Origin: Planctomycetota bacterium
GTDB taxonomy: Bacteria; Planctomycetota; UBA1135; GCA-002686595
NCBI GenBank assembly: GCA_012959525.1
Contig: DUDB01000029.1
Coordinates: 1-64,000 of the forward strand
Length of the DNA stretch: 64,000 bases
Reading direction: 5' to 3'
A program made the position numbers and the translations under genes. The notes beneath the pieces are model-generated. The model was not told the origin of the DNA, did no database searches, and saw nothing but the letters and a program-made list of their open reading frames with translations. Shown piece by piece: positions 30,025-51,924 of this stretch. Numbering within the stretch: the stretch's first letter is position 1; each line of letters starts with the position of its first letter.

Positions 30025-31575
30025 TCAGCGGAAGTACACGCGGCGAGTCACAGCGACGCCCCGGCAGGCGTGGCAGGGCACGATCTGCACGGAGGAGGCC
30101 TGCTTGCTGCCGCCCCCACCTGCGTAGATCATCTCCAATGCCCCACGGCCTCCACATGTGGAGCAGGCCTTGAGGTAGGGGTGGTCACGGAGCTCGTAGT
30201 CCCCGGCGAACTCCACGTAGAAGGCCTTGATCCAATTGGCGCGCTTACTGAGGGAGAAGGCGTCCCAGAAAACCTGGAACTGGTCCTCCTGGGCGGCCTG
30301 GGCCTGGGCGCGACGAGCATTGCGCTGGTTCTTCAGGAAGCGCTGGATCTTGTCCTCCAGTGCGGCCCGCTCCTTGTCCTTGTCGGTCATGGTCTCGCGC
30401 TGGGCGGTAGTGTCCTCGGTACCCGCACGGGCCTTGTCCTCCCCGAGCATCCAGGTCCCCTCGCCGTAGGTGGCGTTGTTGTAGCGCAGCTTCTGACGCG
30501 AGACCCAGTGGGCCACAATCTGATCCTCACTCGCCTCAGAGTTGTACTGTCCCTGAACGTCTTCAAGCACAGCCTCTCGGATGGCCTCGCCAAGCCCCTC
30601 TTCCGCAAAAGCCAAGGCACCGACGTAGTCGAGACTGCCAGCCGCCTGCCGGGTCAATCGCGAGAGCCAGTAGCTCCAGCGCCTGCGCACGAAATCGGTC
30701 ACCGCCTCATCACGCGCGAGCATGATCTGGATTTCCTTGGCCTTGACCTCCAGTACCAAGGGACTACCCGGGAACACGTTGGCGAAATCCGCCAGATGCT
30801 CAAGCGCCTTCTCATACTGCCCCTTCTTGCGCAGCACGTCGACGCTACGCAGGTAGTCGATCTGGGCCTGCTGGGCGGCCTTGACCTCGGCCAAGGCGAC
30901 GGCATTGACGAGGTCCGGATGCTCTCCGGCCTCGTCGAGGGCCACGGCAGCCTGGAAGTGCTCCAGGGCATGCTGGAAATCGAGAAACTTCTCGCAGGTG
31001 TGCGCCAACTCGATCTGGCCCTGGAGGTCCGTCTCCACCAGCTCGGCGGAGTGACGGGCATACAGTTCCTCGCGACTGTAGATATCCAAGGCGGGAGCCT
31101 GCCCCCCCTTGGAGACACTCTGCACCCGGCGCTTGGGCACCAACTGCAGGTTGCCGTCTACCTGAACGACGAAGTCCGTGCCTTCCCGCGAGAGGATGAC
31201 GCCCACGACCTCGTACCCGTCCACCAGGATCAGGCGCTCAACGTCCACCATCAGCTCGTCCGTGGCCACGTCCACGTAACCCAACTGTTCGCGCAACTCC
31301 TGCTGTTGGCTGGGATCCAGCGCGGTCCAGGCCACACTCGCCACTCCGCCATGGGACAGGAGCGTGAAGCGGAAACCATCCGGGTCGTGGTCGAGGATGT
31401 GGCCCCACCGGATCTGGCCACTGCGCAGCCTCAGCATCAGCGCCGGCTGCATCTCCACTTCAGAAGACGGCTCAGGCGTGAGACCGCCGGGGTCTTGCCC
31501 GGGGGTCTGGAGCGCCGAGGCGCTGGCACACAGGAGAAGGGCAAGGCTCAGGGATTTGAGAGTGTCAATCATCAC
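30025..31575 (-). CDS. Secreted protein with TPR-like helices and DnaJ-type Cys motifs
   Basis: 516 residues. Signal peptide MMIDTLKSLSLALLLCASASA. Two short beta-units follow (LRLRSGQIRWGHILDHDPDG and LILVDGYEVVGVILSREGTD). A helical middle has TPR-like repeats at about residues 185-275 (FLDFQHALEHFQAAVALDEA, GQYEKALEHLADFAN), then a charged helix. Near the C-terminus are CSTCGGRGAL and CHACRGVA, two CxxCxG units like the DnaJ zinc finger. Overlaps the GspI-like gene by 4 bases, so it belongs to the pseudopilin operon. I cannot name a function; a periplasmic assembly or quality-control factor is one guess. Confidence 0.7.
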   Translation of the reverse strand: MMIDTLKSLSLALLLCASASALQTPGQDPGGLTPEPSSEVEMQPALMLRLRSGQIRWGHILDHDPDGFRFTLLSHGGVASVAWTALDPSQQQELREQLGYVDVATDELMVDVERLILVDGYEVVGVILSREGTDFVVQVDGNLQLVPKRRVQSVSKGGQAPALDIYSREELYARHSAELVETDLQGQIELAHTCEKFLDFQHALEHFQAAVALDEAGEHPDLVNAVALAEVKAAQQAQIDYLRSVDVLRKKGQYEKALEHLADFANVFPGSPLVLEVKAKEIQIMLARDEAVTDFVRRRWSYWLSRLTRQAAGSLDYVGALAFAEEGLGEAIREAVLEDVQGQYNSEASEDQIVAHWVSRQKLRYNNATYGEGTWMLGEDKARAGTEDTTAQRETMTDKDKERAALEDKIQRFLKNQRNARRAQAQAAQEDQFQVFWDAFSLSKRANWIKAFYVEFAGDYELRDHPYLKACSTCGGRGALEMIYAGGGGSKQASSVQIVPCHACRGVAVTRRVYFR

Positions 31576-32096
31576 GGTCGGTCAGGGGTAGAAGACGCAG
31601 CGGACTGGCCCTCCTCGTCCGAAGCCATCTCCGGGGGAGGGGGGAATGAGCGGGCTTGGATGAAGCGTCGGCGCAGTCGCTCTCCAAAGGGTACTTCACG
31701 TAGCAGCAGGGTGGTGAATTTGCGCGCGCGTTGCACTCCGGCGGCCTCCCAGGAGACATTCACATCCACGGCGAACTCGTCCGGGTTGTCGGGGTTGATC
31801 CGCGCCAGGGCCGAGTAGATAACGCCGGTGGTGCCAGGCACCGGGCGATCGACGATCACCCGCGGGTCCCCCACACTGCCGTCCTCCTCCAAGGGAAAGA
31901 GGGACTCCTCCAGGTCGGCCACCACGGCCTCGATGGCCGTGGAGGCAGCCGTGCGCAGGGCGGCGGTACGAGTCAGGGCTGCGCCGAAGGTGAACAGCCC
32001 CAGGAGCGAGGTCATGGCCATGACCAGCAATCCCATGGCCAGAACAACCTCCAGGATGGTGAACCCTGACTGGGCGCGGGTGGGTGTGGAGCTCAT
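31572..32096 (-). CDS. Minor pseudopilin, GspI/PilV-like
   Basis: 174 residues. A ten-residue leader ending in Gly is followed by the prepilin motif G-FTILEVVLAMGLLVMAM with Glu at mature position 5, then a hydrophobic helix. The remainder is short, with VIVDRPVPGTTGVIYSALAR and a strand-rich region. A prepilin peptidase would cut and methylate it before assembly in the inner membrane. The C-terminus is Pro/Ser/Asp-rich. It overlaps both neighbours by 4 bases. Confidence 0.85.
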   Translation of the reverse strand: MSSTPTRAQSGFTILEVVLAMGLLVMAMTSLLGLFTFGAALTRTAALRTAASTAIEAVVADLEESLFPLEEDGSVGDPRVIVDRPVPGTTGVIYSALARINPDNPDEFAVDVNVSWEAAGVQRARKFTTLLLREVPFGERLRRRFIQARSFPPPPEMASDEEGQSAASSTPDRP

Positions 32097-33307
32097 CGGC
32101 CACTCCCCAGCCGGGCCGAGGACGCCGGGCGTCCCAGGTTCCAGTCGTCACTGTGCATGGCCACGGGCACCTCCACAGTGACCGTCTGTCCATAGTGCAG
32201 GTGTGCGCCGATCTCGTGGGGCATCGCGGCCGTTCCGCGCGCGGCGCGTTTCACGCTCACGCGGTCGCCACGCAGGTTCTGCACCTCCATCCACTCGCCG
32301 TCGATGAGGATGTGACGCCCTTTTCGGTAGGGAACTCCGGAGCCATCGCTCACCTCAAATGAGGTCGTCTGTTTTTCAAGAGGTTCAAGCAGGGTCGGAC
32401 GCCTCCGAAGATCCGCCGGACGCTCGAACTCCAGCTCGACGCGCACCCGGCGGGGGAGCAGCGGGCTGCCAGACAAGGCCGGCATCCCCGCACCCGCCTT
32501 GTTCCAGGGATGCGCCTGCCAGTCCGGACAGAGAGGATCGTCGCTGGATCGTTTCCAGGCATCCCAGGAAGCACAGGAGTGCTCCAGTCCGGCGCCAAGG
32601 TTCCAACCATCCCAGATGATGCTCGTCTGGGTAGCGAACTGCAGTCCCAACCAGAGGAGCCCTCCGGAGACCTCCTCCAGGCCCCCCACTTTGGGGCGAC
32701 CCGATGAGGAGAAGAAGTCGGACTTGAAGAAGTTCCCGACGGAGCCCGGGGCCAGAAGGGCCTCGCCGCGCATGAGAAGGCCCTGTCCGCGTGAAAGGGC
32801 GTCGGTACCCACGGGCACCACGGCCCAGGCCACCTCCATCAACCCGCTCTGTATGGCCGGCGTGGGGCGCTGATCCTCGGGAATGAGAGTCTCCACGTCG
32901 ACACCCAACTCTGCTGCTTGGGCCACCAGCGCGGGGTCCACATCCCGAGCCGCCAGGCGCACGACGTCCGCCATGGATGCCGACCGCACCAAGCGCAGCC
33001 GCGGCCAGACGCGATCCACGCGCCCATCCTGGTCCACGTCGAAGTTGACCCAGTCGACGAGGAGGTCCCCTTGGTTTCCGCTGTGCAGAGCACGTAGATC
33101 TTTAGCCAGAAGCTCAGCAGTCGCGGCCCCACGCTCGACGATCAGACGTTGATCCTCTCCCCGGGTCCACATGTCGAGCGCTGTGTCGAGCAGGCGGAAG
33201 AGCGCCACCATCAGAACGGCGGCCAGCCCCGCCGCCACCATCAACTCCACCATGGTGAAACCCTGTCGAGCAAGGGAGCCCTGAGAGTTCAGACGGGAGC
33301 CTCTCAT
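32093..33307 (-). CDS. Minor pseudopilin, GspJ/PilW-like, with a tail-fibre-type beta-repeat
   Basis: 404 residues from ATG 33307 (the frame is open to 33592). Prepilin motif QG-FTMVELMVAAGLAAVLMVAL with Glu5. Residues 90-98 read DVDQDGRVD, an EF-hand-like acidic loop. Residues about 330-376 contain GRHILIDGEWMEVQNLRGD and RAARGTAAMPHEIGAHLHYG, the repeat type found several times in the adjacent 1708-residue protein. Twice the length of a usual GspJ. Overlaps the giant gene by 4 bases (ATGA). Confidence 0.82.
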   Translation of the reverse strand: MRGSRLNSQGSLARQGFTMVELMVAAGLAAVLMVALFRLLDTALDMWTRGEDQRLIVERGAATAELLAKDLRALHSGNQGDLLVDWVNFDVDQDGRVDRVWPRLRLVRSASMADVVRLAARDVDPALVAQAAELGVDVETLIPEDQRPTPAIQSGLMEVAWAVVPVGTDALSRGQGLLMRGEALLAPGSVGNFFKSDFFSSSGRPKVGGLEEVSGGLLWLGLQFATQTSIIWDGWNLGAGLEHSCASWDAWKRSSDDPLCPDWQAHPWNKAGAGMPALSGSPLLPRRVRVELEFERPADLRRRPTLLEPLEKQTTSFEVSDGSGVPYRKGRHILIDGEWMEVQNLRGDRVSVKRAARGTAAMPHEIGAHLHYGQTVTVEVPVAMHSDDWNLGRPASSARLGSGR

Positions 33308-36300
33308 TGCTCCACACTCCTCAGCACCTGACCGGGTGCCTGATAGCCCACACCCAGGCGTTTCAGGCGCGGCGTTTCCTTCCAACCGTGCGAGAGGCCC
33401 GCCGTGGGGTCGAAGGCGCCCGGGTCGTAGCGCACGAAGACGCGCCAGTCGATGCGCTGGGACTGCACGCCCACCGGCAGAGCCTCGTCCCCGTTCCGGC
33501 CCCGCAGCAGGAGCTGCAAGCCGCTCTCCTCTTCGGGGTCCGCGTCCCAGGGAACCGATGGGTCCGTGCGTTGCAACACACCCAGGTGACACTGACCGTG
33601 GGTGGCGGGCTCAGAGTCCCAGAAGGACTCGGACCACCAGGCACCGGGCTGCTCCAACTCAAAACCGAAGTACGACATCTCAGGGGCGTCGGCCTGCTCC
33701 GCCCAACGATCCCAATAGCGGAACGGGAAGGAGATCACGGTGGAGCGCATTGCGTGCGCGCTGGGCACGGTGCCATAGCGGCCCCGGAACAGCCCCGCTC
33801 CGCCCCCATCGTCACTGCTGGAGCTGGAATCCGGATCGTCGGCGTCGTAGCCGGAGCGCGGCATCTCCAGCGAACCTCGGCGCTGACGCGTGAAGTGGAT
33901 CAGCTCGTCCCCGATCAGGACCGTACCGGAGGTGCCGAAACCGGTGGCGCTCTCCAGAGGCAGGGTAGAGTCGGAGGGGCCGATCCCTCCAGTCAGGGAG
34001 CTCACTGCCCAGCCTTCCATGAACGTCACGAGCTCGGTCTGTTGGTGAGGCTGGGGATCCGTACCCAGGAGGCCGCGACCGTCGGGGGCGATGACGAGTT
34101 CGCCGGTTTCCGCGACGCGCTCGGTGTAGGCCAGGATCTCGTCGCCGATGCGCAGGAGGCCTCCATCGCTGTCCAAGGCCTCGAGCACACCACGCGCGCC
34201 GCCCCAGCGACCGCCCGGAATTACGAACCCCGTCTGCTCTAGGAGCATCGTCTTGCTGCTCTCATCCATGGGTAAGGCCAGGATCATCTGCGCGCCCGCG
34301 CTGTGCATGGGGGGGCTGGTGAGGGGCAAGCCCGTCAGGAATTGTTGCGAGCCAAAAACCACCTCGTCCACGACCGCCGAAGGCACCTCCCCTCCCTGGG
34401 CATCGAAGGTCGAGCCTACGCTGACCGACGAGACGGTGCGCGGCCTCTCTCCGGAGGGAAATTTGGTGATGCGCGACAGGAGGCGGGGGTCCGTTGTGGT
34501 CGTGCCGACCGTGGCCATGGCGATCGACTCGGGGCAGGGCTTGTCGAAGGCCACGTAGATGTGCTGCACGTTGAACTCCGAGTGATTGACCTCGAAACTC
34601 TCAGGGGAGCTGGGAATGGCCGTCTGGTCTCCGGCCGGATCGAAGTCCCAGCCGTAACCGGTGTGTTCGGCCGCAGGCAGGTGAGCCCGCTCCACGACCA
34701 TGGGCCATCCCAGGTGGTCCGGATTGGCGCCCGACACGAAGACCGCATCCCCAGCACCGGGTCGGCCCCCGTCCACCCCCCTGTCGAAGAGATGGAAGAC
34801 CGGCAGGACCTGGGTTCCGGCGGGATGCTCGTGGGTGTGGGTTCCCAGAACACCGCGGAACTGAAAGACCGAGGAGACCGCCCGGGACAGGTAGAACTCA
34901 TCCAACTCGGATTCTCCGCGCAGGGGGTCCCAGTCGGACCCGGCAGACCCAGCCGGGTTTGAGGACGCCACCGGAGGAGCGGTGGCAGGTGCATAGTTAC
35001 CGCCACCGCCTCCGCCTCCGCCACCACCACCACCCACACCACCACCGCCGTTGTCGTCGATGGTTCCACGCAGGTCGTTCATGACGCCGCCGGAGGTCAG
35101 GGTGACATAGACGGCGCGTAGAGCCTGATTGCGGTCACGCACGAGTTGACCCTGGGCTGTGGCCAAGGTGTCGTAGCGCACCCACTCGGTGAACTCGGCT
35201 GCGTCCGGCCGCGTGAGCTGGACAAACTCCGAGCTGTTCAGGGCCGGCAGATACATAAGGTCGTCGGCACCCGGACACGGAAGGGAAATGGGAACGCAAT
35301 AGCAGCCCATGCCCATCATGCCCTGCACCAGATCTCCTTCTGCGTTGGTGGTGCCCTCCCAGTCCACAACGTAGACACGCACACCGCCGGCAAATCCGGT
35401 GGGGTCCTGGTTGCCATAGTTGGGCAGCTCGTTGGCCACGACGTCTCCGCGGGCCGTGACGTTGAGGACGGTTCCCGTGTAACCCGAGTAGCGGATGATC
35501 TCCAGCCCGCCCAGGGGCGCGTTGGGAGGGATGGCCGAGGTACCCGTCTCGTCAAAGGCCCAGCTCTGCTGAACAAGGGCGGCGTAGCCTCCGGTGGGGT
35601 TGAAGGCCGTCATGACGTCGGTCTCACCTGCATCACCGGTGGGGTCGTCACCCGAAGCCAGCATCAGGCCACTCATGTTGGTGGCCTCGTACCCGTCACC
35701 GAAGTCGAAGAAACCGCCCAGGATGGGATCAGGACCCGTCCCCGTCGAGGCGTCCACTCCGATCACCCGCGCCACCCTGAACGGGCCAATGGCCTCAGGT
35801 AGTTGCGCGTTGCCTGCGGGCAGATTGGAGGCCAGGGGCGCCGAGTAGCCGTAGAGGGACACGCTCGCGCCGGACGGGTGATCCGTGGTGATGAACCCGA
35901 GGTTGGCGGGCAGACCCTCCACGCTCCAGCGCGTGCGCGCCAGGCGGCCGCCGTGCCCGGCGTCAGGGCCAACCTCTATATGGGTGGCTTCAAGCCCTCC
36001 GGAGGAGAGCACGTACTCCACCAGCTCGTTACCAACGCGCACCACCCCTCGAGAGGGGAAGCCCTCAGTGTCCTCCAGAGCCAGAAAACCCGTGCCCTGG
36101 CCGGCCCCCGCACTGAGCTTCGACATTCCCGGACGCCGCACACCCGAGGCGGAACCGTTGACCATCAGGCCCAGCTGATCCGGACGCGTACCAAGCACCT
36201 CCACGGAGATGTGGCTCCAGGTATCCACGGGAAGCCCGGGCCCATCCCCCTCTGCAAGGGCGAAACGGGCCTCGGCTGCCTCCCGGAAACCGGGGGTGTC

Positions 36301-38430
36301 CACGTGATCCCCGAACCCATCAAGGACCCGCAACACGAGGTCGTCGCCCTCCATCAATAGGCTGACGCGGTCCGACTCGCGGCTGGTCATGCCTGCGTCC
36401 AACAGGTAGCCCCCACCCAGCACAGCGGGCTTGACCCACAACTCAAAAAGGACCGGGTTCATCAAGCCGCCCGCTCGCGCGTCAGCCCAAGCCACGCGCC
36501 TGTCGTTTACGGCGAATCCCAGAGTCTCGTCCGGCAGATAGCGGCCCTCTAGATCGCGGGTCTCCCGGTCGAAGTGCAGGCTGCGACCGCGATAGCGCCA
36601 CTGTTCCTCCAAGCGGGAGGGCCACAGCTGCGCCCAGGCCTCGTCCTCGCGCGAGGCGAACACGTGCTCGCCGGGGCCCGGCTCCGCGCTGTCGGAGTCA
36701 TCGGGAGTGAGACCGGGCAAGTAGACGCGGCCGTCACGGGTGCCCATGTGGGGCCAGACCCGCGAGGGAGGTGTAGTGCCTCCGTCCCACTGGGACGTGG
36801 CCTCGGGGCCCGTGGCCCACCAGGTGGCGCGCCGGGTCAGGCGCATGGACTCGTCGAAGGCCTCTTGTGTTCCCCACAGGGTGAAGAGATCGCGCTGGGG
36901 CACAATCCACTCGACACGCTCCCGCAGCGCATGGGTGCGTTCCAATCCACTCGGCGCATTGACCGAAGCGCGCAACTGCATGGAGTACACGTCGCGTGAC
37001 GTGAAACACAGGGGCATGGTCGAGAAAGCCAGGGAGGCGTCATTGGCGTTCAGGCTGTTCACGTAGAGCGCCAGCGCATCGGCCGAGGAGATAGCCGCAC
37101 CCGCGTTGCCGACGAAGCGGTCAGGGGCCGCAGGCGAACCCGAGGGCAGCTCTTCAATCCCCGCCGCGGGCAGGACGATGCGTCGCATCCAGTCCTCAAG
37201 TCCCTCGAAGGGGCGGCTCTGGGCCGTCAGCTCCGCAAGGAGCTTGGCCTCGCTCGTGGTGATGCGCGAGTTCTGCCCGCGCAGTTGGAGGTTCTCAAAC
37301 AGTGCGCGCAAGACGAGCTCGGGCGCCGTGTTGACGTTCACGGGCCGGCGTGCCAGCACGCGCACCTCCGTCTCCCACGCTAGGTAGTCCCGATCCAGAA
37401 CATGGTTAAAGAGGATGCGCCCGTTGTTGCTGCGCGACTGCACGTAACGCAGCTCGCCCCCCTGCTTGTCACCGATCCAAATCGTTGCACCCTCGTTGAG
37501 GTAGCGTGAATCATCCACGCCCATGGAGAGGGTCATGCCACCTTCGATGGGAGTGATCAGGCGCACGGACTTCTGCCAGGCGCTGCCCGCGCAAACTCCG
37601 GCGTGCACGCTCCCTACCTCACCCAGTGCGTTGTAGGCGCCGTCCCCGACGCCCCCCACAATGGCGAAGTTATCGGACTCTCGTAGCTGCTCGATGGTGT
37701 CGAACTCGCGCAGCCGACCGTTGGGGCCCGAGATGCGCCAGATCACTGGGGCGAAGGAACGCTGATCCATGACGTGCGCACCCACCGGATGATCGGAGGG
37801 GGGACGCGGGCCATCGGTCATCCAATCGCCGTCATCATTCTGATGGGTGTTCACTCCCCGCACCCGAACCTGGATCTCGCCCTCTTCATCGAGAACGTAG
37901 TGGATGATCTCACCTTGAATGATGAGGAAACCCTCGCGCTCACCGAAGGTCCCGGCGTCATTGAGGGCCATTGCATCTGCGTCTCCCCCGAGTACGTCCG
38001 AGGTGCGGGTGATAAGACCCATGGCACTGGCCAGCAGCTGGGGCGGCGCGCTGTTCAGATCAATCAGCCCCGCCACGTCGCGTACGTCCAGGTCCCACAT
38101 GGCGCCCGTCGGGTCGTTGGCCTTCAGGAACGCCTCGTCAAAGTTGTTGTCCACGCTCAACTCCTCCAGGGAGTCGGCCCAGGGCGAGAGGTCCGGCAAG
38201 CCCGCGTGGGAGGCTCCCAGCTTCCCTCGGGCGTGACGCGCAGCGGAGTCCAGCAACAGGCGCGCCTCGGCTCGATCGGCCAGGTGTACGCTGGCCCGAT
38301 CCGCATTGCGGGCGGCCAACAGGAACGGGGCACACAGCACCAGTAGCGAGAGGACCACGAGCAGCACCGCCATCAAGGCGAAGCCCTCGCGCCCGCGGTC
38401 GGGTAGAAGAATCGGCTTGCGAACTCTCAT
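33304..38430 (-). CDS. Giant GspK-like minor pseudopilin (1708 residues) with LamG and beta-repeats
   Basis: Starts with a short basic leader and EG-FALMAVLLVVLSLLVLCAPF. Like GspK it lacks Glu5. GspK-type helix-turn motifs follow at about 119-130 (VAGLIDLNSAPP) and 363-371 (PVNVNTAPE). GspK normally has about 330 residues and this one has 1708. Added parts: a LamG-like region (about 655-760; LFELWVKPAVLGGGYLLDAG, DTWSHISVEVLG), at least four copies of a G-x-E-x-x-x-Y ... RG-x-x-GT-x-x-x-H repeat (about 167-220, 790-855, 1421-1470, 1497-1566), and a poly-Gly tract (1128-1143). Probably the tip of a pseudopilus, displayed outside. Overlaps both neighbours by 4 bases. Confidence 0.8.
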   Translation of the reverse strand: MRVRKPILLPDRGREGFALMAVLLVVLSLLVLCAPFLLAARNADRASVHLADRAEARLLLDSAARHARGKLGASHAGLPDLSPWADSLEELSVDNNFDEAFLKANDPTGAMWDLDVRDVAGLIDLNSAPPQLLASAMGLITRTSDVLGGDADAMALNDAGTFGEREGFLIIQGEIIHYVLDEEGEIQVRVRGVNTHQNDDGDWMTDGPRPPSDHPVGAHVMDQRSFAPVIWRISGPNGRLREFDTIEQLRESDNFAIVGGVGDGAYNALGEVGSVHAGVCAGSAWQKSVRLITPIEGGMTLSMGVDDSRYLNEGATIWIGDKQGGELRYVQSRSNNGRILFNHVLDRDYLAWETEVRVLARRPVNVNTAPELVLRALFENLQLRGQNSRITTSEAKLLAELTAQSRPFEGLEDWMRRIVLPAAGIEELPSGSPAAPDRFVGNAGAAISSADALALYVNSLNANDASLAFSTMPLCFTSRDVYSMQLRASVNAPSGLERTHALRERVEWIVPQRDLFTLWGTQEAFDESMRLTRRATWWATGPEATSQWDGGTTPPSRVWPHMGTRDGRVYLPGLTPDDSDSAEPGPGEHVFASREDEAWAQLWPSRLEEQWRYRGRSLHFDRETRDLEGRYLPDETLGFAVNDRRVAWADARAGGLMNPVLFELWVKPAVLGGGYLLDAGMTSRESDRVSLLMEGDDLVLRVLDGFGDHVDTPGFREAAEARFALAEGDGPGLPVDTWSHISVEVLGTRPDQLGLMVNGSASGVRRPGMSKLSAGAGQGTGFLALEDTEGFPSRGVVRVGNELVEYVLSSGGLEATHIEVGPDAGHGGRLARTRWSVEGLPANLGFITTDHPSGASVSLYGYSAPLASNLPAGNAQLPEAIGPFRVARVIGVDASTGTGPDPILGGFFDFGDGYEATNMSGLMLASGDDPTGDAGETDVMTAFNPTGGYAALVQQSWAFDETGTSAIPPNAPLGGLEIIRYSGYTGTVLNVTARGDVVANELPNYGNQDPTGFAGGVRVYVVDWEGTTNAEGDLVQGMMGMGCYCVPISLPCPGADDLMYLPALNSSEFVQLTRPDAAEFTEWVRYDTLATAQGQLVRDRNQALRAVYVTLTSGGVMNDLRGTIDDNGGGGVGGGGGGGGGGGGNYAPATAPPVASSNPAGSAGSDWDPLRGESELDEFYLSRAVSSVFQFRGVLGTHTHEHPAGTQVLPVFHLFDRGVDGGRPGAGDAVFVSGANPDHLGWPMVVERAHLPAAEHTGYGWDFDPAGDQTAIPSSPESFEVNHSEFNVQHIYVAFDKPCPESIAMATVGTTTTDPRLLSRITKFPSGERPRTVSSVSVGSTFDAQGGEVPSAVVDEVVFGSQQFLTGLPLTSPPMHSAGAQMILALPMDESSKTMLLEQTGFVIPGGRWGGARGVLEALDSDGGLLRIGDEILAYTERVAETGELVIAPDGRGLLGTDPQPHQQTELVTFMEGWAVSSLTGGIGPSDSTLPLESATGFGTSGTVLIGDELIHFTRQRRGSLEMPRSGYDADDPDSSSSSDDGGGAGLFRGRYGTVPSAHAMRSTVISFPFRYWDRWAEQADAPEMSYFGFELEQPGAWWSESFWDSEPATHGQCHLGVLQRTDPSVPWDADPEEESGLQLLLRGRNGDEALPVGVQSQRIDWRVFVRYDPGAFDPTAGLSHGWKETPRLKRLGVGYQAPGQVLRSVEQ
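35002..35049. repeat. GGN trinucleotide tract encoding poly-Gly
   Basis: Sixteen codons in the giant GspK-like gene give eleven consecutive Gly preceded by GGGGV. On the plus strand it reads as CCN triplets. A flexible linker and a possible slippage site. Confidence 0.85.
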
Positions 38431-39437
38431 TCCACCGTCCCGTATACGTTGACTCGAATCGTCTCAACACCACCCTCGCCGAAGTCGAGGCCCACCTCCA
38501 CCGGCCGCAGATGAGCCGTTGGATCCAAACCGCCACCGGCCATGAACTCCACGGAGGCCGGGGTCTGCGGGGTGAAGTCCACGCCCAGGGGCAGCACACC
38601 CCGCTCGCTGCCCACCACGACCGCCAGGACCAGTCGGTCCAGGACTCCCGAGGGCAGGGTGGTTCCACCGCCCACGAGCAAGGGCCCCTCCACGTTCCAC
38701 ACGGGCACGTCGGAGGCGGTTGAGGCCAGCGGGACTCCGTTGACCAGAAGGCGCAGGGTGCGCCGGTCGTAGACGCACCGCACGTGGTTCCATTGGTTCG
38801 GCCGTAGAGCCGTGGCACGGGTCTGCACACCGACCCTTCCTCCACGCCGGGGCTGGCCCAGCGCATCCACCTCGCGCCGGTATAGGGTGGCCGAGAGGCC
38901 TCCGCCGGAGGTGGTCTGCAGCTGGAAGGCGTCGCCGATCTCGATCAGCTTGGCCCCCACCATGAGCTCGGGCTTGAAGCTGATCTCCAGACTGAACCCG
39001 TCGGTCAAATCGAAGGCAGGGTCGTCCTGCACGGGGAACTCCGCCCGGGCGCCGGCGGGCGCCCCGTCGAACGAGAGGCCGCGCCCCATGAACCCATCGT
39101 CGTCCAGCAGGGAGCCGCTCCCCAGGAAGACACCGTCGATGCCATCTGAACCGCTGAGGGTCTCGTCCTCGAAATGCCAGGTGCCCACCACGCGCATGCC
39201 CACGGTCAGGATCTCGCCCGTCTTCCGATCGAGGGTCACGCGAGCCGGAGCACCCAATGCCACAGCGGTGTTGTGCGCGGTGCGCAACAAGCTCGTGACC
39301 TGACCCAGCGCTGCGCGCCGACCGGGATCAAGGGTGGCGAAGGCCCCCAGGCCCATGCCCATCATCACGGCGATCAGCCCCATCACGAGCATCAGCTCGA
39401 TCAGGGTCATGCCCGCATTGGAACGGGCAGGACGCAT
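38427..39437 (-). CDS. Pseudopilin, GspH/FimT-like N-terminus fused to a LamG domain
   Basis: 336 residues from ATG 39437; upstream residues in the open frame overlap the next gene. Prepilin motif NAG-MTLIELMLVMGLIAVMMG with Glu5, followed by RTAHNTAVALGAPARVTLDR, a GspH-like beta-start. Residues about 95-280 are a concanavalin-like LamG fold: GTWHFEDE, GRGLSFDGAPAGARAEFPV, DGFSLEISFKPE, NQWNHVRCVYDRRTLRLLVN. A LamG domain on a pseudopilin is unusual; it may bind a glycan or protein outside. Third pseudopilin in the run. Confidence 0.82.
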   Translation of the reverse strand: MRPARSNAGMTLIELMLVMGLIAVMMGMGLGAFATLDPGRRAALGQVTSLLRTAHNTAVALGAPARVTLDRKTGEILTVGMRVVGTWHFEDETLSGSDGIDGVFLGSGSLLDDDGFMGRGLSFDGAPAGARAEFPVQDDPAFDLTDGFSLEISFKPELMVGAKLIEIGDAFQLQTTSGGGLSATLYRREVDALGQPRRGGRVGVQTRATALRPNQWNHVRCVYDRRTLRLLVNGVPLASTASDVPVWNVEGPLLVGGGTTLPSGVLDRLVLAVVVGSERGVLPLGVDFTPQTPASVEFMAGGGLDPTAHLRPVEVGLDFGEGGVETIRVNVYGTVE

Positions 39438-39441
39438 GGGA

Positions 39442-40143
39442 CTAGTCCCGCTCAATCTCGAAGTTGGCGATGTCATCTGCGTTCCCGAAAATGCCGTCGG
39501 GGCCGGCGGAGATGATCTGGAAGCTGGACTTGCGGTGGGGATCTCCCGTCTTGCGAGAAACGCCCCCCTTGACCGGGCCCTCAATGTCCAGACCCACCTC
39601 GTCATAGGTGAGGTAGTGGATTTCCTTCTCGTAGTCCCGACGGTGGATGTAGGCCAGGGGATTCCCCCAAACGTCGGTCAATTCGAAGGCCTCCGGGCTG
39701 CTGAAGCGCGTCAGGCTGGTCTTGGTGCTGTCGCCATCCGTGTTGCCCAGGGCATCCTCGCCTATATCTGCAGCCTGCCATGGACGGCCCTGGCTCCATA
39801 GGCTGATGACGAGCATCTCCACGCCCATGTTGATGCGGTTGGGCTTGGGATCGAGGCTGGCCGGGAACGTCGAGGGCGGGTAGCGCTGGAACTCGTTGTT
39901 GTACTCCTCCACCAGCCCACCGATGGTCTGGATCAGGGCCTTGGTGTTGCCCACCTCCACGCTGATCTGAGCGCTGCGCACGGAGCGCACCAGGAAGGTC
40001 ACCAGGATGGAAAGGATCAGGAGCACCGCCAGGAGCTCGATCAGGGTGAACCCGCCCTGGGCTCCATTCCGTTCGGGGCGCGCCGCGGCGCGCGACGCCG
40101 AGGAAGGCGCCAGGAGGGAGAGAAGGGACTTGGAGATTTGCAT
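39442..40143 (-). CDS. Major pseudopilin, GspG-like
   Basis: 233 residues. A 31-residue leader, long for this family, precedes GG-FTLIELLAVLLILSILVTF with Glu5. The C-terminal half has the GspG pattern: YPPSTFPASLD, ALGNTDGDSTK, ELTDVWGNPLAYIHRRDYEK and SAGPDGIFGNADDIANFEI, the last being the Asp-rich loop that binds calcium in GspG. It lies 15 bases past the TPR gene and 4 bases before the GspH-like gene. Confidence 0.9.
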   Translation of the reverse strand: MQISKSLLSLLAPSSASRAAARPERNGAQGGFTLIELLAVLLILSILVTFLVRSVRSAQISVEVGNTKALIQTIGGLVEEYNNEFQRYPPSTFPASLDPKPNRINMGVEMLVISLWSQGRPWQAADIGEDALGNTDGDSTKTSLTRFSSPEAFELTDVWGNPLAYIHRRDYEKEIHYLTYDEVGLDIEGPVKGGVSRKTGDPHRKSSFQIISAGPDGIFGNADDIANFEIERD

Positions 40144-40158: not shown

Positions 40159-42855
40159 CTAGAGCCGCCGCCGGACGACCCCTACGTGATCAACAGAAAC
40201 CGAAGCCCGCCGACCGGCACGGCCCTCAACGAAGATGCCAAAGCGCAGCGGCTGGCTGGAACGGCCCAGGGTGGGCAGAGCCAGGTTCTCGATCACCGGT
40301 ACGCCGTCGACCCACAGGGTGACCGTGGTGTCCGAAGAGGTTTCGCCGCGCTTCTCGATACCCACGCGCATGGGCTCCCCCACATTCCATTGGGCGGTGT
40401 ACAGATCCTGCGCCGCCGCATCCAACTCACCCTTCTTGGTCAGCGTCGCGCGCACGGCGCCGTCCCAGTAGCGCACCAACTCCACGGCTGCATGGGTGCG
40501 GATGTCTCCGGTGCGGCCTTCGGTCTCCCGCGCTACAAAGATGCCCACGGTCACGTCCCGTGAATCGGGATGAACGGTGAGCTCGGCTTCCAGGGAGAGC
40601 AAGCGGTCCGCGGGAAGCTCCCTGTACAGGCGTGTCCGGCTCTCCTTGGTAAGCTGCCCCTCGATCCACACGGCTCCGTCCCGCAGGCGCACCTCCGCGC
40701 CATAGCCCTGGTCGTAGGTCCAGCCGTTACCCACACGACCCACGCGGTCGAACCGGTCGCGCCAGAACTCTTTGCTCTCGTGGTCGCGGATACGGGCGCT
40801 CTGGGCCTCGGCATATTGACTGGGAGCATCGCCCTCGGCTTCGCCGCGGCGGATGTCCACCAGCTCCGCGAAGCTGGCCTGGGCCTGCCCCGAATCGCCG
40901 CTCAGGTACTGCCACCAGGCCAGGCCGTTGCGTGCCGACGCGAGGTCGGGGTTGAGTGCCAACGCGGCTCCAAAAGCGGCCTCGGCCTTACCCAACTCTC
41001 CCAGCACCAAGAAGTTCAAACCGCGCCGCGCGTGTACGGAGGGGCGGGCGGATTCGATGCTGAGAGCCCGCTCGTAGTAGCGCTCGGCCGAATCCGGATC
41101 GCCACCTTCGCTGGCCAGGGCCCCCATGGCCACCAGCGCATCGGGGAAGTCCAGTTCCTGATCGAGGGCGTCGCGGAAACTCGACATGGCCTCGTCATCC
41201 TCATCGCGCTGTGTCTGCAAGCGCCCGCGCTGATAGAGAGTCCAAGTGTCTTCGGGGTTGGCGGCGTAGGCCATTTCGATGTAGGTCCAGGCCTCCTCCG
41301 GATGGCTGGTGATCTCGGCCAGCCAACTCAAGCTGCGCCAGCAGAGCCACGCCCGGAAGGGATCGACTGCGGCGGCCTGCAGCAGAGAGCGTACGGCAAC
41401 TCCATCCTCTTGCGCCTGCAGGGCAGCCAGTCCGCGGGCGAAGAGCAGATCGAAACTGGCGTCCGGCCCGTCACGGGCTTCCTCATTCTCCAGCCCTTCG
41501 CTCTCACCTAGCAGGACGGAGGCCGCCAAGACTCCCGCGGGGCCCAGGTCCGCATCAGGGTCGGCGCTGGCGCCGCGCTCGAATGCGTCCCGCGCCGCCT
41601 GCACTTCCCCGCGAGCCATCAGCACGCGGCCGAAGTCCGTGCGGATACCCACACGCTCAGCGCGCAGGTCGTTGCCCGTGGGTTCGCGCTTTTGAGCCTC
41701 GTTCAAGTGTTCAAAGGCCTGGTCATACTGACCGGCATCCAGAAGGAACCGTCCGTACAGCCAGCGCACAAGCCAGTCCGTACGCGAGCGGCGCAGACCC
41801 TCGTCGAAGGCCTGCTGCGCCGGGCCCCGCATGCGGAAACGAGCGTACAGGTCCCCCAGCCGGGCCCAGGGTTCGGGCTCCGTGTGCAGGTCGCCTTCGG
41901 TCAGATTCGCGTAGACGTCCAAGGCCGCCTGGAAGTCAAAACCCAACTCATGGCACCGAGCCAGTCCCAGGTGAGGTCGCACATCGGTGGGCTGTAGCCC
42001 CACGCACATACGGTAGAGATCCTCGGCGACTTCCAGGGCACGCGGAGTCTCATTGCGCAGCTGCAGACACTCCCCGGCAAAGCGCATGGCACCGTCAAAG
42101 TCCCCCGCGCGCAAAGACGACCCGAAGCCGAAGCGGCCCAGCTCGACCCTGTTCGTCGGGGTATCGGCAAAGCCGAACTCCTGCACGCGCTCGGCGTCAT
42201 AGGACACGGCTTGCTGACCAGGGAAGCGCTCCCTGCCGGTGCTGGGGTCGATCTCAAGGAACGAGATGGCCTCGCCGCTTCCTCTCAGAGCAAAACGATC
42301 CGTGTTGTCGATGTGGCCGAACTTCAGGTTGGCCACGACAATCCAGTCGTAGAGTTTCTTGCGCGCTTCAATGCGCGCAAGGCGCTCGTCGACGGTGAGA
42401 TCCGCGTCCGAAGCGCCACTCACAGTCGTGACCCCCTCCGAGTCGCCGACGCCGATGGACGCGGGCTCCATCGAGGAGGCCTCGAACAGGCCCGGAGCCG
42501 ATCGAGCCGAGAGTTGGGTACGCAGCTGCTTACCCATGTGCTTGGCCGCAGGACCGTACGCGCTTGGAGGGGCCAAGGCAGGCAGGGGCTCAAGTGGGGG
42601 CGGAATCAGCTCCAACAACGGCAGAGGTGTGGTGTCCCGCGGAGGCGAGAAGAGATCTCGCTCGAGGGTTCCCTGACGGCTCCCTGCCGGGAGGGCCAGG
42701 CCGCTGTCGGGCACGGCGGCCTGCGAGTAGCTCTTGGCAACACCCGAATCTCTCCCGCGCAGGTCGACGGCCCCATCGGAGATCAAGCCGTAGGCGCTCC
42801 AACCGAGAATGCCCGCTACCGCGAGGAAAATACCGGTTTCTTTTTTCATCTCCAT
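40159..42855 (-). CDS. Membrane-anchored TPR protein with a C-terminal jelly-roll-like domain
   Basis: 898 residues. Helix at about 7-25 (GIFLAVAGILGWSAYGLISD), then a Pro-rich spacer. About ten TPR-like units span residues 240-690 (for example WARLGDLYARFRMRGPAQQA, GQYDQAFEHLNEAQKREPTG, GELGKAEAAFGAALALNPDL). The last 200 residues look like a beta-sandwich (RFDRVGRVGNGWTYDQGYGA, MRVGIEKRGETSSDTTVTLW, PLRFGIFVEGRAGRRASV). Position between PilO-like and GspG-like genes suggests a scaffold for the pilus-type machine, comparable to PilF or PilP in place, but not in sequence. Confidence 0.68.
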   Translation of the reverse strand: MEMKKETGIFLAVAGILGWSAYGLISDGAVDLRGRDSGVAKSYSQAAVPDSGLALPAGSRQGTLERDLFSPPRDTTPLPLLELIPPPLEPLPALAPPSAYGPAAKHMGKQLRTQLSARSAPGLFEASSMEPASIGVGDSEGVTTVSGASDADLTVDERLARIEARKKLYDWIVVANLKFGHIDNTDRFALRGSGEAISFLEIDPSTGRERFPGQQAVSYDAERVQEFGFADTPTNRVELGRFGFGSSLRAGDFDGAMRFAGECLQLRNETPRALEVAEDLYRMCVGLQPTDVRPHLGLARCHELGFDFQAALDVYANLTEGDLHTEPEPWARLGDLYARFRMRGPAQQAFDEGLRRSRTDWLVRWLYGRFLLDAGQYDQAFEHLNEAQKREPTGNDLRAERVGIRTDFGRVLMARGEVQAARDAFERGASADPDADLGPAGVLAASVLLGESEGLENEEARDGPDASFDLLFARGLAALQAQEDGVAVRSLLQAAAVDPFRAWLCWRSLSWLAEITSHPEEAWTYIEMAYAANPEDTWTLYQRGRLQTQRDEDDEAMSSFRDALDQELDFPDALVAMGALASEGGDPDSAERYYERALSIESARPSVHARRGLNFLVLGELGKAEAAFGAALALNPDLASARNGLAWWQYLSGDSGQAQASFAELVDIRRGEAEGDAPSQYAEAQSARIRDHESKEFWRDRFDRVGRVGNGWTYDQGYGAEVRLRDGAVWIEGQLTKESRTRLYRELPADRLLSLEAELTVHPDSRDVTVGIFVARETEGRTGDIRTHAAVELVRYWDGAVRATLTKKGELDAAAQDLYTAQWNVGEPMRVGIEKRGETSSDTTVTLWVDGVPVIENLALPTLGRSSQPLRFGIFVEGRAGRRASVSVDHVGVVRRRL

Positions 42856-42872: not shown

Positions 42873-43667
42873 CTACTGCCCGGCCTCCTCGTCACCCAGG
42901 TTGTCCTTGATGCGCACGACCTGATACTCGATCTCCGCCTTGACCGATCCGATCTTGTTGCGCTCGTTCTTGACGTTGAACTGACCGATGGCCAACGGCC
43001 CGCCGCTCCCGTCTTCCAACGCGGGCTCCTGGCTGGCCACGATCATGTCGGTCACCGACTCAGCGCTGGACAGGAGCGTAAAGGTGACACTCGTACGCTC
43101 CACCGCTCCGAGCCCACTGCGGGACCCAAAGCCCGGATCGAGCTTAACGGCGATACGGCTGATGCGATGGACGCCAGCGTCCGCGGCGAGTCGCGCCACG
43201 CGCTCCAAGAGGTCCAAGGCCTCAAGCCGACGCTCGATCTCCGGCAGGCTGTTGGTCTCCAGCATCTCAATGCCCCATCCATCGGGGTAGTTCATGCGAC
43301 GGCGGCTGGCTAGGAGGTCGAGGTCCTCACGCACCTCCTCCACGCGCGTGAAGTAGATCCCGCTCGCTGAGCCGGCACCCGCCTCGACAACGAAGCCGGG
43401 ACGCGGCCGGAAAGCCGTAGCCCCGGACATGACGCGGATGGCCTCGAGCAGGGCATCATTTTCCTCACCGGCAGCATCGCGATGGGCGGTGGAGTAGCGC
43501 TCGGTCTTGAGGTCTCCACGATTGCGGTTGCGTAGGCGCTTGGCCGTGCCCAAGTCCTCGCCGTAGAGGCTCTGCACCACGAGCAGACCGATCACGAAGA
43601 CGAGAATGCCGCTGCCAAGGGTGACAAGGAAGCGCTTGTTCTCTTGCCAGTAGTCGTTCATGTCCAT
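42873..43667 (-). CDS. PilO/GspM-like inner-membrane protein
   Basis: 264 residues. Short cytoplasmic N-terminus (MDMNDYWQENKRF), one helix (about 13-33; LVTLGSGILVFVIGLLVVQS), a charged stretch and two ferredoxin-like halves (ALDLLERVARLAADAGVHRI; SVTFTLLSSAESVTDMIVAS). Size, topology and position right after a PilM-PilN fusion identify it as the PilO-type partner, although sequence similarity is weak as usual for this family. The ATG lies two bases after the PilM-PilN stop. Confidence 0.7.
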   Translation of the reverse strand: MDMNDYWQENKRFLVTLGSGILVFVIGLLVVQSLYGEDLGTAKRLRNRNRGDLKTERYSTAHRDAAGEENDALLEAIRVMSGATAFRPRPGFVVEAGAGSASGIYFTRVEEVREDLDLLASRRRMNYPDGWGIEMLETNSLPEIERRLEALDLLERVARLAADAGVHRISRIAVKLDPGFGSRSGLGAVERTSVTFTLLSSAESVTDMIVASQEPALEDGSGGPLAIGQFNVKNERNKIGSVKAEIEYQVVRIKDNLGDEEAGQ

Positions 43668-43669
43668 GG

Positions 43670-45367
43670 CTAGTACTCCTCCCCTCCGTCATCATCCGCG
43701 TCGCCGTCAGCCTCGGGTGGTGGCACACCGAACAGGCATAGGTCCAAGGAGAACTGGTCCCGGTCGATGGACTCTTTCATCCGACCGCCGCCCTTGCCAT
43801 CCCCCACGAGTGCCTCGCGCATGGTGCGCGTCATCTCCTGGAACTGGCGGCTGGGGGAGTCGGTTCCGGGCCGGATCATGCCACGCACCATGAGCATCGG
43901 CCGCTCGGCGTTGCGCTCGACTCCCAGCTCTGGGTCAAAGGTCCACTCACTGTTCAGCTCAGAGACCCAGAAGTCGCTGGGCAGGGAGTTGTCGAGCTGA
44001 CTCATCGCACGCGCGCCCTGTTCACCCAAACCCGCGACCCACTGAAGCTGTGAGGCGAGCACCCGCAGGGACTCGTTCTCCTCGATCAACTGCTCAGCCT
44101 CGCGATGGATCCGAGTGGCTCGAGAGAGGCGAGACTGTAGCCCGGCGTTCTCGCTATTGACCCGGTCAAGTTCATCGGCGAGGTGGACCGTTTTGAAACC
44201 CAGGTAGCAGACGGCCAACACGGCGGCCGCGATGAGCCAGATGGTCTCGCCCCAGAAGGCTCGCTTCTTGGCCAGGCTGGCTGGCAGAATCTCTAGGCTG
44301 TAGGCATCTGAATCGGAGCCCATGGTGGCCAGCCCTAGGGCCACGACCGCCTCCAGCTTGAACTCTTCAAGCAGATCCGCGCTGGCCGCGTCCAGCTTGT
44401 CCGTCTCCACCATGCGGAAGGCGTCGAAGAGCTCCACAGTCACGCCCATGCCACCCGAGATGTACTGGGGCAAGCCGTCCAGGGCCGCGCCGCCGCCGCA
44501 GAGCATGACGCGATCCACCTTCAGGCCGCTGATCTTGACCTGACTCTTGCAGAACAGGATGGCCGACTGGAGCAATGACAGGACCTGACCCGCGGCGCCC
44601 ATGATGGCGCGGCTGGCTTTCTCATGGTTGGGGGTCGGGTGGGCGGCTCCTGGACGCAAGCTGGCGTACTTCAGCTTGAGCTTCTCGGCCTGTGCCGGGC
44701 CCACGTTGAAGCGCTGGGCCAGGGCCTGGTCAAAGAGCCGGCTACCCCCTGAGAGGTTGCGCGCAAACAAGAGATCCGGTCCCCGGGCGATGACCACGTC
44801 GATGTTGTCGTGACCAATATTGGCTAGGAGGACGGTCTCGTCTTCCACCACGCCGAAGTGCGTCCAGGCGTTGTGCAGGGCGATGGCGCTGGGACTGAAG
44901 CTGTCCAGGTTCCCGCCCGTCAGGGCCAGGCCCTCAAGGTGGTCGTCCAGGAGGCCTTCGCGTGCCATTGCCAAGAGGACCACGTCCTCGCCTTCCACCT
45001 CGGGGAGCTCGGGCAGGAGGTTGAAGTCGCTCGCCACCTCGGTACCGGACTGATCACCTATCTCGGATACCTCGAACCGCATCAGGTTGCGCAGCTGCCA
45101 GTCGGGCACCCGCGGCACGCGGGTGTAGCGCACGTTGACGTCACGCCCGGTCAGCCCCACCCGTGCCGCCACGGGCTTGAAGCCCTGAGCTAGCTCCTCC
45201 CAACCGCTCATCAACCAACTGGAGTCCCCTTCACCCGTACTGGAGCTCACGGAGGGATTGGCACGGGCGTTGAAGTCCGTGACGTGGAAGGTGTTCCCCT
45301 TGTACTGTCCGCACAGGGCAATGGCCGAACCGGCACCTACGTCGATACCTGTGGAGGTGCGCGCCAT
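43670..45367 (-). CDS. PilM-PilN fusion (actin-like ATPase plus membrane partner)
   Basis: 565 residues. Residues 1-355 are a PilM/GspL-type actin fold: TGIDVGAGSAIALCGQYKG, RVPDWQLRNLMRFEVSEIGD, TVLLANIGHDNIDVVIARG, KVDRVMLCGGGAALDGLPQY. Residues about 370-395 are a membrane helix (WLIAAAVLAVCYLGFKTVHL), then a coiled coil (RVNSENAGLQSRLSRATRIH) and a PilN-like periplasmic part with VSELNSEWTFDP. In most bacteria PilM and PilN are separate and joined by the PilN N-terminal peptide; GspL carries both. The ATG overlaps the upstream stop by one base (TAATG). Confidence 0.8.
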   Translation of the reverse strand: MARTSTGIDVGAGSAIALCGQYKGNTFHVTDFNARANPSVSSSTGEGDSSWLMSGWEELAQGFKPVAARVGLTGRDVNVRYTRVPRVPDWQLRNLMRFEVSEIGDQSGTEVASDFNLLPELPEVEGEDVVLLAMAREGLLDDHLEGLALTGGNLDSFSPSAIALHNAWTHFGVVEDETVLLANIGHDNIDVVIARGPDLLFARNLSGGSRLFDQALAQRFNVGPAQAEKLKLKYASLRPGAAHPTPNHEKASRAIMGAAGQVLSLLQSAILFCKSQVKISGLKVDRVMLCGGGAALDGLPQYISGGMGVTVELFDAFRMVETDKLDAASADLLEEFKLEAVVALGLATMGSDSDAYSLEILPASLAKKRAFWGETIWLIAAAVLAVCYLGFKTVHLADELDRVNSENAGLQSRLSRATRIHREAEQLIEENESLRVLASQLQWVAGLGEQGARAMSQLDNSLPSDFWVSELNSEWTFDPELGVERNAERPMLMVRGMIRPGTDSPSRQFQEMTRTMREALVGDGKGGGRMKESIDRDQFSLDLCLFGVPPPEADGDADDDGGEEY

Positions 45368-47439: not shown

Positions 47440-47694
47440 GGACGGCGGAGGGGGGACGAGTCGACTCCCACCGCCAAGCAACCTGGAAAGGGGTGCCGAC
47501 CGTGGAGGGCTGGGGAGATTGTGGGGCGGGACGGGGCGCAGGGCCTATCCCCATTGGTGCGCCCGGTAACCCTCCCCGTGCCCACGGAAAGGGCAATGAG
47601 AACGCATCGGGCGGGGGCGAGGGTAGCGCAGAGGCGGGGCCCCCGCAAAGGGGACCTTTACTCCCTGGCTCCCTGGCTCTGGCCCCGGGGCTCC
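47440..47694. promoter_or_regulatory. Intergenic region between radC and the pseudopilin run
   Basis: 255 bases; the likely promoter region for the 21-kb minus-strand run, and the 3' end of radC. Bases 47634-47646 (GCGGGGCCCCCGC) are a GC palindrome 50 bases past the radC stop and may be a weak terminator. A short direct repeat CTCCCTGG occurs near 47660-47680. I see no convincing -10/-35. Confidence 0.35.
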
Positions 47695-51853: not shown

Positions 51854-51924
51854 TCGCAGAGAGAATCGTCCGAGGTCAAGGAAGCAAGAGTGTAGCGCTC
51901 CCTGTGCATGCTACCGTAGCCAGC

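What the first reader, a model, noticed from the sequence alone, without database searches (positions are those of the whole stretch)
33304..38430. GspK-like pseudopilin of 1708 residues
The N-terminus (prepilin helix without Glu5, NVNTAP-type motif) is GspK-like, but GspK normally has about 330 residues. Here roughly 1300 extra residues follow, including a LamG region and repeats. Since GspK sits at the pseudopilus tip, this would put a giant multidomain adhesin-like body at the tip.
Basis: partly seen in the sequence, partly recalled or inferred. Interest (0 to 1): 0.72.

Follow-up and report, generated by a model that had tools for sequence, protein, structure and literature searches.

The report
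Giant GspK-like tip pilin, Planctomycetota
A bacterial pilus subunit that normally has about 330 residues has here grown to 1708, by carrying a sugar-binding-type domain and four copies of a module also seen in phage tail proteins, and this giant form is conserved in about half of the sampled genomes of a whole phylum, so it is a real and unusual protein whose function is still untested.

Summary
The ORF (minus strand, 33304-38430, 1708 aa) is one intact gene. It overlaps the GspH-like gene before it and the GspJ-like gene after it by ATGA, keeps one codon-position GC pattern throughout, and is under purifying selection along its whole length (dN/dS 0.07-0.09).

It is not an assembly artefact. 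60 of 61 relatives and 208 of 392 genomes across the phylum (Planctomycetota by named relatives) have a match, and nearly all strong matches sit in stop-free frames of 1300-2400 codons. The order FHA-PilM-264aa-TPR-G-H-K-J-I is conserved in most of 20 distant loci.

Residues 1-515 are a GspK homologue: profile-profile comparison with canonical GspKs gives 96.7% and 94.6% for two collinear regions, against 0.3% or less in controls. The structure test failed (pLDDT 33), so the fold remains unproven.

A separate GspK of normal size exists in the same genome.

Best reading: a giant modular K subunit that caps a type IV-like filament and presents a ligand-binding body. Tip position and adhesion are inferred. 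New variant of a known kind.

The parts
33304..38430 (-). giant GspK-like pseudopilin gene, 1708 aa
   Evidence: homologues in 60/61 relatives and 208/392 phylum genomes; dN/dS 0.07-0.09
38383..38430 (-). class III (prepilin) leader, residues 1-16, cleavage G16|F17, no Glu at +5
   Evidence: sequence; conserved G-[FMYL]-A in the family and similar phylum-wide
37996..38382 (-). GspK core, N-terminal part (residues 17-145): hydrophobic helix and DVAGLIDLNSA motif
   Evidence: hhalign to 16 canonical GspKs, P 96.7%, E 4.6e-10
37759..37992 (-). phage-tail-type module M1 (residues 147-224), inserted between the two GspK motifs
   Evidence: module HMM E 1e-15; PHROG tail/baseplate families hit this copy in homologues
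36886..37395 (-). GspK core, C-terminal part (residues 346-515) with NVNTAP
   Evidence: hhalign P 94.6%, E 7.3e-8 for 352-440; T2SSK at 364-382 E 0.002; NF037980 at 357-392 E 8e-5
36091..36618 (-). LamG (ConA-like lectin) region, about residues 605-780
   Evidence: PF13385 in 10/20 homologues, located at the equivalent place; not significant in this protein alone
35839..36090 (-). phage-tail-type module M2 (residues 781-864)
   Evidence: module HMM E 4e-21
34996..35064 (-). Gly-rich linker (residues 1123-1145), within the least constrained stretch
   Evidence: dN/dS 0.17-0.22 for residues 1111-1165
34015..34185 (-). phage-tail-type module M3 (residues 1416-1472)
   Evidence: module HMM E 7e-12; phrog_1101 tail protein E 1e-4 at 1423-1478
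33721..33975 (-). phage-tail-type module M4 (residues 1486-1570)
   Evidence: module HMM E 3e-21
33307..33708 (-). conserved C-terminal domain (residues 1575-1708), no known relative found
   Evidence: present in distant homologues (A3 profile); no PDB match
38427..39605 (-). GspH-like minor pilin with a LamG domain (N_methyl E 7e-5; LamG E 8e-8)
   Evidence: conserved upstream neighbour
39442..40143 (-). GspG-like pilin
   Evidence: TIGR01710 E 9e-9, below its cut-off
32093..33307 (-). GspJ-like pilin, 404 aa; marginal copy of the module near its C-terminus
   Evidence: N_methyl E 1.4e-4, start, module E 0.008 here but down to 5.6e-11 in homologous J proteins
31572..32096 (-). GspI-like pilin
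   Evidence: XpsI NF047828 E 1.5e-8, below its cut-off
43670..45367 (-). PilM / Amuc_1101-like protein
   Evidence: PF11104 E 6e-14; NF045709 E 2e-30, below its cut-off
42873..43667 (-). 264-aa protein with one N-terminal hydrophobic stretch, in the PilN/PilO/GspM position, no family
   Evidence: position-based inference
40159..42855 (-). TPR protein of the cluster
45367..47481 (-). FHA-domain protein of the cluster

Best explanation
The gene encodes the K subunit of a G-H-K-J-I pseudopilin set in a planctomycete. The first ~515 residues form a GspK-type pilin, which in other systems caps the H-I-J-K complex that starts the filament (homology shown; cap position inferred). A ~1190-residue body follows: a LamG lectin-type domain, three further copies of a phage-tail-type module (the fourth is inserted in the pilin head) and a conserved C-terminal domain. 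The body would be presented at the filament tip as a multi-site ligand-binding (most likely glycan- or surface-binding) device. LamG on H and the module on J would make the tip complex as a whole a receptor-binding head. The filament would use the prepilin peptidase, assembly ATPases, PilT-type retraction ATPases and secretins encoded elsewhere in the genome; a likely use is attachment to particles and/or capture of polysaccharide. Step by step: K homology ~0.9; in a filament with H, I and J ~0.75; tip position ~0.7; extracellular ligand binding rather than a periplasmic role ~0.55; polysaccharide capture specifically ~0.3.
For: GspK homology: (with controls). Pilin neighbours in fixed order. 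Gene overlaps H-K-J. Whole-length conservation and purifying selection. LamG in K homologues; LamG in H. Tail-type modules in K and J. The genome encodes a prepilin peptidase, T2SSF proteins, secretins and four PilT-family proteins. Precedents from papers: GspK is described as a modular pilin proposed to be at the tip (PMC8179133); the S. sanguinis PilC lectin module binds glycans and is modelled at the tip (PMC9934059); planctomycete pili-like fibres bind dextran (PMC5394234); a PilM/pilin locus is linked to attachment and glycan use in Verrucomicrobiota (PMC13174399).
Against: No usable structural model. This protein alone scores below the curated cut-offs of T2SSK and NF037980. No secretin or GspF gene was found in the cluster, so the assembling machine is unknown. 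The body evolves slowly (dN/dS about 0.1 or less outside the linker), unlike many adhesins. Dextran-binding fibres were seen in Planctopirus and Gemmata; whether those species have this K was not tested. No ligand is known.
Confidence: 0.5

Rival explanations
1. The giant K works inside the envelope: it caps a short type II pseudopilus and its body is a cargo-recognition or gating platform in the periplasm, sorting exoproteins to a secretin.
For: The neighbours are pseudopilin-like (G, H, J, I). T2SS-type D-E-F genes exist elsewhere in the genome (L068). The T2SS pseudopilus tip is thought to contact substrate and secretin (background knowledge). Slow evolution fits an internal role. A body of over 1000 residues would be hard to pass through a secretin.
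Against: LamG and tail-type modules are typical of extracellular binding. The genome also has a separate normal-size GspK beside secretin-domain ORFs, which could serve the T2SS. No conserved link to GspD/E/F genes in distant loci.
Confidence: 0.3
2. A membrane-anchored giant surface or periplasmic protein that merely uses a prepilin-like N-terminus as anchor and is not part of a filament.
For: Other large prepilin-start proteins exist in this phylum (many ORFs of about 800-1560 codons matching only the N-terminus of Verru_Chthon_A).
Against: It has both GspK core regions, not only the N-terminal helix, and lies between H and J in a conserved pilin cluster.
Confidence: 0.12
3. Assembly or annotation artefact fusing several genes.
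For: Unusual size only.
Against: Same architecture in stop-free frames in dozens of independent genomes; even codon-position GC.
Confidence: 0.01

Closest known systems
GspK (type II secretion minor pseudopilin K; PF03934, NF037980; E. coli K-12 b3332)
   Same: Prepilin site without Glu5, hydrophobic helix, NLN-type and NVNTA motifs in order, position in a G/H/I/J cluster.
   Different: 1708 instead of ~330 aa (327 in E. coli K-12); ~200-residue insertion in the head and ~1190-residue body; gene order G-H-K-J-I instead of G-H-I-J-K; weak scores to curated models.
Modular pilins (S. sanguinis PilB with vWA, PilC with a ConA-like lectin; PMC8179133, PMC9934059)
   Same: Pilin module plus grafted ligand-binding module, lectin-type fold included.
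   Different: K-type pilin, with no N_methyl-type signature hit, so a survey by that signature (IPR012902) would miss it; about twice the largest case reported there (860 residues); phage-tail-type modules; one architecture conserved across much of a phylum.
PilC/PilY1 tip adhesin
   Same: Very large tip-presented multidomain protein in the working model.
   Different: PilY1 is not a pilin; no PF05567 match in this protein nor in 61 genomes (but no control genome rang).
Verru_Chthon cassette protein A (TIGR02600, 1296 positions)
   Same: Large protein with a similar prepilin-type N-terminus; PVC bacteria (background knowledge for its hosts).
   Different: Matches cover only about model positions 1-72 at 19-31 bits, cut-off 332; the rest unrelated at this sensitivity.
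Phage tail/baseplate proteins and GTA megatron Rcc01698 (PHROGs 4406, 2885, 1101; PF23666)
   Same: Share the ~50-80 residue 'GxVxIGxExIxY ... RGxxGT ... HxxG' module.
   Different: Only the module is shared; no other tail domain was recognised in K.
Akkermansia MUL2 / Amuc_1099-1102 locus
   Same: PilM homologue (NF045709, E 2e-30, below cut-off) linked to a pilin-like gene and attachment/glycan use.
   Different: No giant K mentioned in the passages read; different pilins.

Membership tests
GspK (T2SS K subunit) | Class III leader, G|F cleavage, hydrophobic helix, no Glu at +5 | tested here: met
GspK (T2SS K subunit) | Sequence homology over both conserved regions (N-terminus to NLN; NVNTA region), collinear | tested here: met
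   P 96.7% and 94.6%; controls 0.3% or less
GspK (T2SS K subunit) | Curated model cut-offs (NF037980 130 bits; PF03934 24.2 bits) | tested here: not met
   22.3 and 18.8 bits, so it is called a GspK homologue, not an NF037980 equivalog
GspK (T2SS K subunit) | Size about 300-400 aa | tested here: not met
   1708 aa; canonical GspKs collected here are mostly 312-437 aa frames
GspK (T2SS K subunit) | Encoded with GspG, H, I, J | tested here: met
GspK (T2SS K subunit) | Pilin fold with alpha-domain inserted in the sheet (3CI0-type) | tested here: inconclusive
   model pLDDT 33; PDB sequence profile found no GspK
GspK (T2SS K subunit) | I-J-K tip complex | not testable with these tools
   needs biochemistry or cryo-EM
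Modular pilin | Pilin module plus extra functional domain | tested here: met
   by sequence: LamG in homologues, tail-type modules
PilY1 | PF05567 domain | tested here: not met
   no hit in P0001
Verru_Chthon cassette A | TIGR02600 over its cut-off | tested here: not met
   0 of 20 genomes over the cut-off, N-terminus only
T2SS as a complete system | GspD, E, F encoded with the pseudopilins | tested here: not met
   not found in the window cluster nor as a conserved part of distant clusters; present elsewhere in the genome

The most novel reading that the evidence does not exclude
In much of Planctomycetota the pilin tip complex (K, J, H) has been turned into a phage-tail-tip-like receptor-binding head on a retractable filament, which captures polysaccharides or particles and brings them to the cell.
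Probability: 0.2. Interest if true: 0.87.

Novelty: new variant of a known kind. Interest (0 to 1): 0.63.

Why it matters
Modular pilins were surveyed through a pilin signature and the largest reported had 860 residues; K-type giants in frames of 1300-2400 codons, matched in about half of the sampled phylum, were not described in the papers I could search. Planctomycetes bind dextran on pili-like fibres and take up macromolecules by an unknown route, and this cluster gives concrete candidate genes for a test. Sharing of one small module between a pilus tip complex and phage tail/baseplate proteins would, if borne out structurally, link two kinds of receptor-binding tips.

Tried and rejected
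AlphaFold on residues 1-560 and 1163-1708 with the only admissible rows (window plus two ~91% identical orthologues): pLDDT 33 and 27, discarded, no fold search made. PDB search with the single protein gave only Gly-linker-type matches, mostly scFv chains; profiles A2, A3 and A4 gave nothing useful. PDB search with the module profile: best a phage minor tail protein, 8vjh, E 0.18, not significant. tblastn of a homologue against phages: one hit, a baseplate wedge protein, E 1e-4. Verru_Chthon A considered and rejected. Alignment A9 contained a mistyped row and was not used; redone as A10. PilY1 absence is not informative because no control rang. A search in another phylum was not possible with the handles at hand, so the distribution outside the phylum is untested. 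The E. coli GspK search of plasmids was not used further.
Full report
What is there. The ORF lies on the minus strand, 33304-38430, 1708 aa, ATG start. Its start overlaps the stop of the GspH-like gene and its stop overlaps the start of the GspJ-like gene, both as ATGA; codon-position GC is even along its length, so nothing suggests a frameshift or fusion by error. The genome held is a 4.0 Mb draft of 84 contigs; its nearest named relatives are Planctomycetota MAGs.

Real and conserved. With the protein as query, 60 of 61 relatives match, many as one frame of 1600-2150 codons without stops. A profile of residues 1-560 matches 208 of 392 genomes sampled across the phylum; nearly all strong matches lie in frames of 1300-2400 codons. 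In 20 distant loci the head, middle and C-terminal profiles match the same ORF, one of them being cut by a contig end. Between congeners dN/dS is 0.07-0.09 overall and below 0.14 everywhere but in the Gly-rich linker: the whole protein is under purifying selection.

GspK homology. The protein alone scores weakly (T2SSK E 0.002; NF037980 E 8e-5), but all 17 family members and 18 of 20 in the distant set hit NF037980. Sixteen canonical GspKs, E. coli K-12 GspK included, were aligned. hhalign gives 96.7% (E 5e-10) for residues 1-145 and 94.6% (E 7e-8) for residues 352-440, in the right order; unrelated parts of the same protein and column-shuffled profiles give 0.3% or less. The two GspK motifs are separated by a ~200-residue insertion, which helps to explain the weak single-model scores. 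Part of the N-terminal signal could come from any prepilin helix, but the NLN and NVNTA motifs are K-type. The fold itself could not be tested.

The rest of the body. A LamG domain is recognised in half of the distant set, just after residue ~600 where located. A module of ~50-80 residues, consensus FPxxGxVxIGxExIxYxRxxGxxL...GLxRGxxGTxxxxHxxGxxV, occurs four times at fixed positions in the family: 147-224, 781-864, 1416-1472 and 1486-1570. In distant homologues the same module is matched by PHROG families annotated as virion structural, baseplate and tail proteins (best E 5e-23; 17, 13 and 14 of 20 members) and by Pfam Rcc01698_C, the C-terminal domain of the GTA baseplate megatron (3 of 20, best E 1e-4, below its cut-off). 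This protein itself reaches E 1e-4. The J neighbour in many distant loci has one copy near its C-terminus (E to 6e-11); the window's J has a marginal one. The function of the module is not established by these matches.

Neighbourhood. FHA, PilM-like, 264-aa, TPR, G, H(+LamG), K, J, I, 516-aa, PPIase, ScpB; this order is kept in most distant loci. Secretin, E and F genes were not found in the cluster but lie elsewhere in the genome, as do a prepilin peptidase and four PilT-family ATPases. A second GspK of normal size (481-codon frame, NVNTA present) sits beside secretin-domain ORFs on another contig, so the giant is not the only K.

Interpretation. K subunits cap the H-I-J-K tip complex that initiates type IV filaments (PMC9934059), GspK has been discussed as a modular pilin (PMC8179133), and a lectin-bearing modular pilin binds glycans (PMC9934059). 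By analogy this K would present a large binding body at the tip. That step, the location outside the cell and the ligand are inferred. Polysaccharide capture is a suggestion from two outside observations: dextran binds to planctomycete pili-like fibres (PMC5394234), and a PilM/pilin locus is linked to attachment and glycan use in Verrucomicrobiota (PMC13174399). The main rival is a periplasmic role in protein secretion.

Novelty. A new variant of modular pilins and GspK rather than a new kind of system: several times larger than GspK, about twice the largest modular pilin in the 2021 survey (860 residues), with tail-type modules, and conserved over much of the phylum. The library searched is open-access only, so prior description elsewhere cannot be excluded.

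Noticed in passing
window 51904-53889 (+): Calcineurin-like phosphoesterase fused to a strong LamG domain (E 3e-26); LamG is thus on K homologues, H and this protein near each other.
   Followed up: no
window 30025-31575 (-): Conserved cluster member of ~516 aa with TPR-like region and a C-terminal zinc-finger-like CxxCxG...CxxCxG stretch.
   Followed up: partly
L067 9055-10500 (G000 contig 9): Normal-size GspK with NVNTAP beside two secretin-domain ORFs of ~500 aa.
   Followed up: partly
G097, several contigs: One genome has about a dozen ORFs, mostly of ~1000-1350 codons, starting with a Verru_Chthon_A-like prepilin N-terminus: an expanded set of large prepilin-like proteins.
   Followed up: no
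L023: A contig filed under a Chloroflexi MAG carries a 96% identical piece of this K, probably mis-binned.
   Followed up: no
window 33304-38430: The GspK model NF037980 did not pick up this gene in the scan of its own genome, so such giants are likely to be annotated as hypothetical.
   Followed up: partly
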